In this document: positions 32,601 through 35,600 of the stretch, in pieces
Numbering within the stretch: position 1 is the stretch's first letter
How the letters are laid out: each line of letters starts with the position of its first letter
Assembly: GCA_949775045.1 (NCBI GenBank)
Contig: OX459109.1
Location: 866,990 to 930,989 of the forward strand
Length of the DNA: 64,000 nt
Reading direction: 5' to 3'
Source: Metridium senile
Lineage: Eukaryota > Cnidaria > Anthozoa > Actiniaria > Metridiidae
The notes under the pieces: generated by a model
Database searches by the model: none
Seen by the model: the letters and a program-made list of their open reading frames with translations, nothing else
What the model was told of the DNA's origin: nothing
Position numbers and translations under genes: made by a program

Positions 32601-35600
32601 GTATGATTTAAGTTGTGTTCAGGTTCGTCAACCTATCAACTGTATATCCATCGTGTGGTCGGTTTACATGGTTTACTATCTATCGTGTGATCGGTTTAAA
32701 GGGTTCGTTATCTATTATGTGGTCGGTTTACAGGGTTTACTATCTATCGTGTGATCGGTTTAAAGGGTTCGTTATCTATTATTTGGTCGGTTTACAGGGT
32801 TTACTATCTATCGTGTGATCGGTTTAAAGGGTTCGTTATCTATTATGTGGTCGGTTTACAGGGTTTACTATCTATCGTGTGATCGGTCTATAAGGTTCGT
32901 TATCTATTATTTGGTCGGTTTACAGGGGTTCTATCGTGTTGTCTATTTTGTTATCAAATATTGTATTTATTTCACCTGATTGTCTCTTCTGTCCACAGCC
33001 AAGTCTCGGGAAAGTTTTTACGTACAGTGTTGGTCTTCTTTGGTCGTACGATCGGTTTGGGTGGTTTCGCCTTCTTGATGGGCTTGTTTGGTTTTCTAGT
33101 TCTTTTCTTTGCAGGTCCATACATTAGCACTTTTTCTTCACGAACCTCAACAAAGATATGTTTATAGATACTGTTATTGTTTTTATTGTGATTATCACTG
33201 TCATCATCACAGTGATCACCAACATCAGCATTACCAAACACATCATCTTTGCCATATCATCAGTATATATCATCATCGTTATTAATAATAGTTATTACCA
33301 TCACAGTGATCACCAACATCAGCATCTTCGCCATATCATCAGTATATTAATAATTATCATAAAGTTCATGAATAATTAATGAGCAATTGACAAAAGAATT
33401 CACGTCCGTGACGGAGGTTGTAAATCTCATACAGATTTCGTCCTGTTTTGCATAAGTTTCAACTTGAATTTTCTCAGCCAGATTTACATTTATCTTGACA
33501 ATTTTAGTAAAATATGAAAGAACTAACGTTGCACTTTCATAAGTTCTATACAATATTCGCGTCCGGTTTGTATTCGATATACAACGGCTCGTCTTGGACT
33601 CGCCGTTGTATATCGGATACACATCGGCCGCTCATATTGTATATAGTACTTACAATAACCACCAACATCATAATCATCATCACCATCATCATCATCATTA
33701 TCATCTTCATCATTATCACAACCATCATCAGTTTTGTCATCCTCCTCCTTATTATTGTTACTATTTATCATCATCATCATTATCATCATCAATCATCGTC
33801 ACCATCATCGTTAATATTTACCACGTGCAAAGTTCTTCGTGAACTGAGATCAGCTGAGCCGGAATAACGGTGTCTTACCCAACCTATATCAACTGGCCTT
33901 CGACGTTTCTTAATAACATAATAGGTTGGCCGTACTATTGGAGGGTCAGTAGGGAAGGGACGACAAGGACGAGATTCTACCTTTGAATCTGACAGAAAGA
34001 TGAGACCAGTGTCCTAAAACAGAGAGAATGAAATAAATAAATATTATAAATGTGATATTTATCGTGCAAGACTTTGTACTATTTCTCCATATCTTTCTGG
34101 GTCAAATGGAAAGGTTATACGACAAGGTCAAGATTCGGACTTTAAGTGCTACAACATGTGAATGTAGGGGTAGTGAGTGTGAGACGTTAATAAAGTAATG
34201 TATCTTTAATCTATTGATGATCATGGTCGATGAAGCTTATGATGGTAATAAAGATGATAGTGATGATGATATTAATTATGGCTGGGATGATATTGATGAC
34301 GATGGTGATGTTGATAATGATGATGATGATGACAATGAAATTAATGATAATACTGATGATAATTGAACATTGAACTAACAAATCCAACTTACGTATATAG
34401 CTTTGGATGTGTCGACATAAATATCTTGGTAACATCGTTTCTTTCTTCCATAATGAGATGATGGACCAGGATTGGACGGCAAGGCATTGATTATCTAATA
34501 AACAAACGAGAATAACATAACCATATGTAACTATTTGATAAAGGTCGATTATCAAAGGCCACAGGTCATTCTATCTTATAAGACAGAAACGAAATATAGG
34601 CATACACCTATTTCAAAACGGTTGTCCAAGGTGATAGGTTATTTCAAGACGAAAAGAAATTATAGACATACACATATTTCAAAAAGGTTGTCCAAATGCT
34701 TTGGAATGACGTACCCCATTGGAATCCCATTGTCAAAAAGATATATACCCAGAATTCAAAGCTTAATCAAACCTTGTTTTCATCGAGTTGCTCGTCTTGT
34801 GCCAACAGTCGCACGCTTTTATCGACGCCAGACAAAGCCACGGTAGAACCTGCTGTGGTTGTCATGGTGATTTGAACAGGCTCACCTGGTCTGCGGACAC
34901 TGTCATCGAAGCGAACAACAACCTGGAAACAGCAAACCAGAGATTAACGGGAGAGTAAGTACGACTCTATTTTATGCAATTGTTCTTAAAAAGTTTCGTT
35001 CACTAGTTTAGCCCCTAGTTATCGTACATTTTACCTCCAATTATTTAATTAAAAATTTCAACATTATTACGATTATTTACGCATTAACTAAGGCTCAGCC
35101 GTGGTTTATACTCTGATAACTGCACGATGGGCAGTTGAAAACACGAGAAAATGTCAAAAAGCACGAGCTGAAAGCGAAAAAAGACATTTATCAAAAATAA
35201 TCAACTTAAAACAGTGTATTTTCTCTGAACTGTCTTTTGATTTGTCATTCTTACTTGAAATATGAATTTTTTTAATTTGTCAGTCATAACCTGAACATTT
35301 GATTTGAAATGCATGTGAGTTTTTAAATTATCGAGAAATCATATTTACTTGATATCATTATTTGTGTAAGAATTTAATAGCAAAGTCATGAATTAAAAGG
35401 ATGTTTTCGTCTTAAAAACGTCTCGTCTTTCTTTGCTTTCTTTCTCTCGAACTTCGGTAAGTTTTCTTTCAAAGTCACTGACAACAGAGAAGCGTGGTTT
35501 ATACTCTGATAAACCACGGTTTTTTAAACAATCATAGCGCGTGTTAGAATGTATCTATGTTATAATGAATTGTAAGTAAAGCTATTAGTTTTTCAAGATG

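What the first reader, a model, noticed from the sequence alone, without database searches (positions are those of the whole stretch)
33822..34013. Bait-exon tail differs completely between near-identical A2M paralogues
In exon 18 of genes A (432-587), B (16296-16469) and C (33822-34013) the first 30 codons are almost identical. The tails of 22, 28 and 34 codons then differ in sequence and length while staying in frame. Similarity resumes at the donor and first intron bases (gt(a/g)aatat(c/t)aa(c/t)gat). Variation is therefore confined to the coding stretch that target proteases cut: A has a Trp- and Pro-bearing, poorly basic bait, B KRRRW and LGRY sites, C KKRRR, RHRY and SRR sites. Focused diversification or exchange of a cassette is the simplest reading.
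Basis: partly seen in the sequence, partly recalled or inferred. Interest (0 to 1): 0.82.

Follow-up and report, generated by a model that had tools for sequence, protein, structure and literature searches.

The report
Sea anemone A2M paralogues' diverged bait exons
Three neighbouring, nearly identical protease-trap genes of a sea anemone differ sharply in the short exposed piece that proteases cut, probably because selection and recombination have given each copy its own bait; this is a clear cnidarian case of a variability already known in this protein family.

Summary
The observation largely holds. The window carries two complete alpha-2-macroglobulin (A2M) genes (B, C) and one cut by the window edge (A), from a sea anemone. 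Outside the bait tail they are about 5% apart at silent sites (dN 0.013-0.020). In B-C, the end of exon 18 is the only unalignable tract that overlaps an exon core. Two claims need correcting. (1) B and C tails are not completely different: they are homologous (alignment z 9.6), with three 6-base in-frame gaps. (2) Variation is not confined to the coding tail: intron 17 of C and intron 18 of A are strongly diverged too, and B changes from A-like to C-like inside exon 18 (between bases 69 and 72). Best reading: the bait is diversified by selection plus in-frame indels, on a background of patchy recombination among copies. Positive selection is likely, not proven. No second full bait exon was found in introns 17-18, and no source of the tails in the window; C has a possible earlier donor inside its tail. 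Bait hypervariability is well known, and 83 of 85 similar A2M pairs examined here show it, so this is a sharp cnidarian example of a known kind. Expression, allelism and protease specificity are untested.

The parts
2..103 (+). gene A, exon 17; first exon of A inside the window
   Evidence: core 16 identical in A, B and C: 0 silent and 0 replacement differences
104..431 (+). gene A, intron 17; 322 of 328 bases identical to B, strongly diverged from C
432..521 (+). gene A, exon 18 conserved head (30 codons)
   Evidence: last AB|C site A500, first BC|A site A503
522..587 (+). gene A, exon 18 variable bait tail, 22 codons [22 protein letters not shown]
   Evidence: no significant similarity to the C tail, marginal to B
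588..1562 (+). gene A, intron 18, strongly diverged from B and C, partly simple repeats
1563..1723 (+). gene A, exon 19 (second half of the bait, 17 K/R, then [12 protein letters not shown])
1..6767 (+). gene A (A2M), exon 17 to stop; cut by the window start
   Evidence: 20 exon cores open
16380..16469 (-). gene B, exon 18 conserved head
16296..16379 (-). gene B, exon 18 variable bait tail, 28 codons [28 protein letters not shown]
16470..16797 (-). gene B, intron 17, A-like
   Evidence: 125 AB|C against 3 BC|A sites
15574..16295 (-). gene B, intron 18, C-like at both ends
   Evidence: 135 of 149 and 174 of 182 aligned bases identical to C
15404..15573 (-). gene B, exon 19 (second half of the bait)
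9438..25050 (-). gene B (A2M), start codon to stop
   Evidence: 34 exon cores open
33924..34013 (-). gene C, exon 18 conserved head
33822..33923 (-). gene C, exon 18 variable bait tail, 34 codons [34 protein letters not shown]; an in-phase GTAAGA donor after 33879 would shorten it to 15 codons
   Evidence: alternative donor
34014..34392 (-). gene C, intron 17, diverged from A and B (94 of 122 aligned bases identical over its first 130)
33146..33821 (-). gene C, intron 18; carries an unaligned stretch (33672-33327) opposite 60 bases of B
32976..33145 (-). gene C, exon 19 (second half of the bait)
26607..42446 (-). gene C (A2M), start codon to stop; MG2, MG3, MG4, bait region domain, A2M, thioester and receptor-binding domains
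   Evidence: 34 exon cores open; Pfam hits of the joined cores

Best explanation
A, B and C are young tandem/inverted copies of one sea anemone A2M gene, a secreted protease trap: when a protease cuts the exposed bait, the thioester (TGCGEQ) fires and the protease is captured (established for the family). The exon 18 tail is the first half of that bait. Shown here: outside the tail the coding cores are about 5% diverged at silent sites and under purifying selection; the tail has far more change than its surroundings and, in B-C, carries only in-frame gaps; B's closest relative changes from A to C inside exon 18, and the copies resemble each other in patches. Inferred: selection for different target proteases favours new bait sequence, by point changes and small in-frame indels within a copy and by keeping, or bringing in by recombination or conversion, divergent blocks that span the bait and a flanking intron, while conversion keeps the rest of the genes alike. 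Each copy would thus offer a different bait on the same trap.
For: Rates outside the tail: BC dS .051 dN .013 (34 exon cores, 2 gap codons); AB .050/.017 and AC .063/.020 (20 cores). B-C: 64 gapless blocks, 12,348 bp, 4.64% mismatch; of 11 unalignable tracts one overlaps an exon core, the tail. Three 6-base gaps in an unconstrained nucleotide alignment, z 9.6. Base-guided codon alignment of B-C: 2.3 silent changes in 20.3 sites, 19.7 replacement changes in 63.7 sites (dS .12, dN .40); so few silent changes occur in 2.3% of 300 codon shuffles and are unlikely for an old block under ordinary constraint (P 4.7e-5 at dN/dS .31). Affinity switch: intron 17 has 125 AB|C against 3 BC|A sites; the exon 18 head 3 AB|C up to A500, then 1 BC|A at A503; intron 18 has 217 BC|A, 118 AB|C, 43 AC|B. 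Patchiness over the rest of the gene: 174 informative sites in well-aligned surroundings, 84 switches against a permuted mean of 114, 0 of 5000 as few. Independent pair in Actinostola (P0001/P0002): 31 of 68 differing columns lie in a 64-column bait, 37 in the other 759. Generality: in 83 of 85 fetched pairs with at least 80% identity the 60 residues before the RKxFPET motif differ more than the rest; the pairs share proteins and are not independent. Literature: bait variability and its link to specificity (PMC7016707, passages; PMC6650032, passages).
Against: The silent/replacement contrast in the tail depends on the alignment: amino-acid-guided alignments of B-C give dS .39-.50 and dN .24-.39 (Fisher P .35-.78), and even the base-guided one gives only P .08 or .07 against a neutral share. 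So positive selection as such is not proven. Divergence of introns 17 and 18 cannot come from selection on amino acids, and these introns are partly simple repeats, a kind of tract that fails to align elsewhere in the gene too. The breakpoint inside exon 18 rests on 3 + 1 sites; separate replacement of C's intron 17 and of A's intron 18 would give the same picture without B being a recombinant. No source of the tails was found. No expression or activity data. The odds given here and for the rivals overlap, since the processes can act together.
Confidence: 0.66

Rival explanations
1. Block import: each tail, with part of its flanking intron, was copied in by gene conversion from older, unseen A2M paralogues or haplotypes, with little in-place selection, as argued for Anopheles TEP1.
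For: B's change of affinity inside exon 18, divergent introns 17 and 18, patchiness elsewhere; TEP1 precedent (PMC2576239, passages).
Against: B and C share both ends of intron 18 (135/149 and 174/182) and the exon head, yet differ in the tail between them, with few silent changes under the base-guided alignment only. No donor in the window. Silent sites of exon 17 plus the exon 18 head are at background in A-C (2 of 48), although both neighbouring introns are not.
Confidence: 0.22
2. Relaxed constraint: the bait is a flexible loop that tolerates almost any sequence, so it drifts neutrally with in-frame indels.
For: The bait diverges more than the rest in 83 of 85 A2M pairs. Replacement change in the tail does not significantly exceed silent change (P .07-.08).
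Against: 22 or more differences in 84 bases is far above the 4.64% background that includes introns (P 2.6e-11); neutral drift alone should not outrun intron sequence several-fold without a local mutation or conversion process.
Confidence: 0.17
3. Alleles or assembly effect: A, B and C are partly haplotypes of one or two loci joined in the assembly (A and B lie tail to tail around a repeat hinge), so the contrast is allelic diversity.
For: A and B are inverted with direct and inverted repeats between them (6889-9316); about 5% divergence is within reach of marine invertebrate heterozygosity (recalled).
Against: Three copies lie in one window with different insertions and repeat arrays. It would not by itself explain the tail.
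Confidence: 0.2
4. Part or all of the tail is not coding (another donor or an alternative exon is used).
For: No transcripts were available. A splice-site scan lists other in-phase candidates: in C a GTAAGA donor inside the tail (exon 34013-33879, 45 codons); in A and B a 57-codon His-rich stretch in intron 17 (A 127-297, B 16774-16604); in A a low-complexity 63-codon stretch in intron 18 (698-886); and internal acceptors within exon 18.
Against: Three tails stay open with donor and phase kept, and exon 19 matches in phase. In homologues the same place is coding bait. The B-C gaps are multiples of 6. The intron candidates are of low complexity and none resembles exon 18.
Confidence: 0.06

Closest known systems
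Alpha-2-macroglobulin bait region variability in mammals (Sottrup-Jensen et al. 1989, title only, seen in the reference lists of PMC9363628 and PMC7016707; rodent murinoglobulin/alpha-1-inhibitor 3 clusters, recalled)
   Same: Bait is the most variable part of otherwise similar proteins, also between paralogues of one species; 83 of 85 fetched pairs show it
   Different: Here a cnidarian, three copies in one window about 5% apart, with intron sequence that shows where affinity switches
Mutually exclusive or alternative bait exons of molluscs and arthropods (Chlamys CfTEP, Biomphalaria BgTEP2, Drosophila TEP2, shrimp A2M-2), as described in PMC7016707 (passages)
   Same: Diversity is placed in the bait-encoding exon
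   Different: There by alternative splicing within one gene; here by gene copies with one recognisable bait exon each (introns 17-18 scanned)
Anopheles TEP1 chimera (PMC2576239, passages)
   Same: Thioester protein gene in a cluster with mosaic structure and blocks of deep divergence
   Different: There the divergent region takes in the thioester domain and exchange with TEP5/TEP6 is shown; here the block surrounds the bait exon and no donor is known
Diadumene lineata A2M (P0003) and Actinostola sp. A2M-like proteins (P0001, P0002)
   Same: Same family; 60-69% identical over query residues 500-1200; the Actinostola copies repeat the bait-focused divergence
   Different: Exon 18 tail not alignable with theirs in sequence or length

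Membership tests
Alpha-2-macroglobulin family | Domain order MG2, MG3, MG4, bait region domain, A2M, thioester domain, receptor-binding domain | tested here: met
   7 Pfam families above cut-off, in this order, on the joined exon cores of C; A and B not scanned
Alpha-2-macroglobulin family | Thioester motif GCGEQ | tested here: met
   TGCGEQNM in exon core 24 of A, B and C
Alpha-2-macroglobulin family | Variable bait followed by conserved RKxFPETW | tested here: met
   alignment with 14 homologues; human A2M and A2ML1 chains match from the RKxFPETW segment on
Alpha-2-macroglobulin family | Traps proteases after bait cleavage | not testable with these tools
   needs protein
Mutually exclusive bait exon genes (CfTEP/BgTEP2 kind) | Tandem alternative bait exons within one gene | tested here: inconclusive
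   introns 17 and 18 of A, B and C scanned: exon 18 recovered in all three, other candidates of low complexity, one possible earlier donor in C; no transcripts
TEP1-like conversion chimera | Mosaic relationships among cluster members | tested here: met
   affinity switch at A500/A503 and patchy sites
TEP1-like conversion chimera | Identified donor locus | tested here: inconclusive
   no tail-like sequence elsewhere in the window; the whole genome could not be searched
Genes under positive selection at a reactive site | Replacement rate above silent rate at the site | tested here: inconclusive
   base-guided alignment dN .40, dS .12 (P .07-.08); amino-acid-guided dS .39-.50, dN .24-.39

The most novel reading that the evidence does not exclude
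Sea anemones keep a germline reservoir of A2M bait blocks (exon 18 tail with flanking intron) that is shuffled among tandem copies by recombination in the conserved exon 18 head, while conversion homogenises the rest: a gene-copy counterpart of the alternative bait exons of molluscs and arthropods.
Probability: 0.22. Interest if true: 0.7.

Novelty: new member of a known kind. Interest (0 to 1): 0.45.

Why it matters
Here the A2M copies are young enough that most introns align, so the origin of new bait sequence can be read: in-frame indels and many replacement changes in one pair, a change of affinity inside the bait exon in another. This makes the question 'selection in place or exchange of blocks?' testable with population reads from one anemone, and offers three natural baits on one trap for specificity tests.

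Tried and rejected
Tail sources elsewhere in the window: blastn-short and tblastn found nothing beyond chance (best E about 0.9 apart from self and B-C matches).

An apparent premature stop in gene B (TGA at 23952-23950) was rejected: the ORF carrying it (core 3) has no counterpart in the three reference proteins used (Actinostola P0001, Diadumene P0003, Oculina P0005), so it is taken as intronic. Core 3 was dropped and core 13 re-framed before the final counts; the first counts included them.

Per-intron coverage with gap-inclusive identity was misleading because indels lower it; it was replaced by gapless blocks and HSP counts.

A first splice-site scan used a pyrimidine cut-off that excludes the real exon 18 acceptors of A and B, so its zero counts mean nothing; one search repeats it with looser cut-offs that recover them.

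Compensating frameshifts in the tails were considered but not tested. Structure prediction was not run: it would add little for a flexible loop.

Full report
What is there. The window comes from a sea anemone: the closest proteins to the joined exons of gene C are from Actinostola sp. (69% and 66% over query residues 500-1200) and Diadumene lineata (60%); after one fish record (32%) come corals at about 48%. It holds gene A on the plus strand (cut by the window start, exon 17 to stop at 6767), gene B on the minus strand (25050 to 9438) and gene C on the minus strand (42446 to 26607). The joined exon cores of C match seven Pfam families of alpha-2-macroglobulin in order, and the thioester TGCGEQNM is in all three genes.

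The observation. The first 30 codons are almost identical, the last 22, 28 and 34 are not. An alignment with 14 homologues places the tail in the bait, after the 'SRPC' part and before RKxFPETW. The first codons of exon 19 differ too (A TKVL, B and C VREEKVL).

How unusual is it? Over 34 exon cores B and C differ at 48.5 of 984 silent and 42.5 of 3291 replacement sites (dS .051, dN .013), with 2 gap codons; A-B and A-C (20 cores) give .050/.017 and .063/.020. The next most changed core in B-C is core 2 (8 of 160 replacement sites). In a gapless-block comparison B and C share 12,348 bp at 4.64% mismatch. Of 11 tracts of at least 35 bases on both sides that do not align, one overlaps an exon core: the tail (B 16349-16299, C 33893-33825). 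The others are intronic, several of them simple repeats. At protein level, with B's cores 4 and 32 typed approximately, the tail with its junction differs in 21 of 40 (B-C), 26 of 33 (A-B) and 34 of 39 (A-C) columns, the remainder in 44 of 1399, 37 of 854 and 38 of 855.

Not completely different. B and C tails are homologous: 61 of 84 bases identical, three gaps of 6 bases, z 9.6. A-B is marginal (34 of 1000 shuffles as good) and A-C is not significant (182 of 1000). In the base-guided codon alignment B-C has 2.3 silent and 19.7 replacement changes (dS .12, dN .40): too few silent changes for an old block under ordinary constraint (P 4.7e-5 at dN/dS .31), but against neutrality only P .07. Amino-acid-guided alignments give dS .39-.50 and dN .24-.39, with no excess of replacement change. 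Positive selection is therefore likely but not shown.

Not confined to the tail. Intron 17 is 98% identical in A and B (322 of 328), but in C only 94 of 122 aligned bases match over its first 130 bases and little of the rest aligns. Intron 18 is shared by B and C at both ends (135 of 149; 174 of 182), but A's is deeply different. Informative sites switch from AB|C (125 to 3 in intron 17; 3 in the exon 18 head up to A500) to BC|A (A503 on; intron 18 has 217 BC|A, 118 AB|C, 43 AC|B, a mixture that I put down to repeats and the unaligned stretch in C). B is thus A-like before and C-like after a point between exon 18 bases 69 and 72. One crossover or conversion in B explains this with one event; separate replacement of C's intron 17 and A's intron 18 would look the same. 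Over the rest of the gene, 174 informative sites with well-aligned surroundings change pattern 84 times against 114 expected (0 of 5000 permutations as few), the mark of patchy conversion. Yet silent sites of exon 17 and the exon 18 head stay at background in A-C (2 of 48), so whether the divergent introns are old blocks or fast repeats remains open.

Generality. The two Actinostola copies repeat the pattern: 31 of 68 differing columns fall in a 64-column bait, 37 in 759 elsewhere. Of 145 fetched proteins (the best hits to this query), 76 were long enough and bore the motif; 85 pairs have at least 80% identity over 700 columns or more and enough bait columns. In 83 the 60 residues before the RKxFPET motif differ more than the rest; P0072/P0074 and P0065/P0074 do not. 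Many pairs share a protein, so they are not independent. Two Muntiacus records differ in 77 columns, 39 of them in a window around the bait centre with identical flanks (others near the start, around column 1200 and at the end); this may be alternative exons, paralogues or a gene-model effect.

Mechanism. An A2M is cut in its bait, changes shape and captures the protease through the thioester (established; PMC12939704 and PMC9156758, passages). Copies with different baits on the same trap would be sprung by different proteases (inferred; not tested here). In molluscs and arthropods the same diversity comes from alternative, partly mutually exclusive, bait exons (PMC7016707, passages). A scan of introns 17 and 18 recovered exon 18 in all three genes. 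Its other candidates were low-complexity or His-rich intron stretches and, in C, an in-phase GTAAGA donor inside the tail that would shorten it to 15 codons. Without transcripts this cannot be settled, but in this anemone gene copies seem to do the job of alternative exons.

What is in print. Ten paper searches were run; I saw the listings (12 of 13 hits, 15 of 3,310, every hit in the others). Bait variability between strains, species and isoforms is described (PMC9363628; PMC6650032; PMC7016707; passages only). No listed title describes bait divergence among tandem A2M copies of a sea anemone; most subscription papers are not held. The finding is best filed as a sharp new member of a known kind.

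Noticed in passing
window 17484-17860 (+), in the intron between exon cores 14 and 15 of gene B: An inverted copy of exon cores 22-23 with the intron between them (94% identical to 14282-13918, 30898-30525 and 2840-3167) sits in a B intron, opposite to the gene: a possible conversion partner or relic of rearrangement.
   Followed up: partly
window 39355-39913: A 64-base minisatellite (8.7 copies) in gene C that repeats the 3' end of exon 9 ([15 protein letters not shown]) in its units.
   Followed up: no
window 31289-32221: ACTGACCG repeated about 117 times in intron 20 of C keeps one reading frame open from exon 20 through exon 21 (32575-30989), coding for [12 protein letters not shown] repeats if retained; A and B lack the expansion.
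   Followed up: no
window 6889-9316: Genes A and B lie tail to tail around a hinge of direct and inverted repeats, which might be a real palindrome or an assembly join.
   Followed up: no
window 46866-48104 (-): A single-ORF rhodopsin-family receptor gene (PF00001, E 4e-34) upstream of gene C.
   Followed up: partly
P0062 and P0080 (Muntiacus reevesi): Two pregnancy-zone-protein-like records of one deer species, 96% identical, whose bait centres differ while the flanks are identical: alternative bait exons, paralogues or a gene-model effect.
   Followed up: partly
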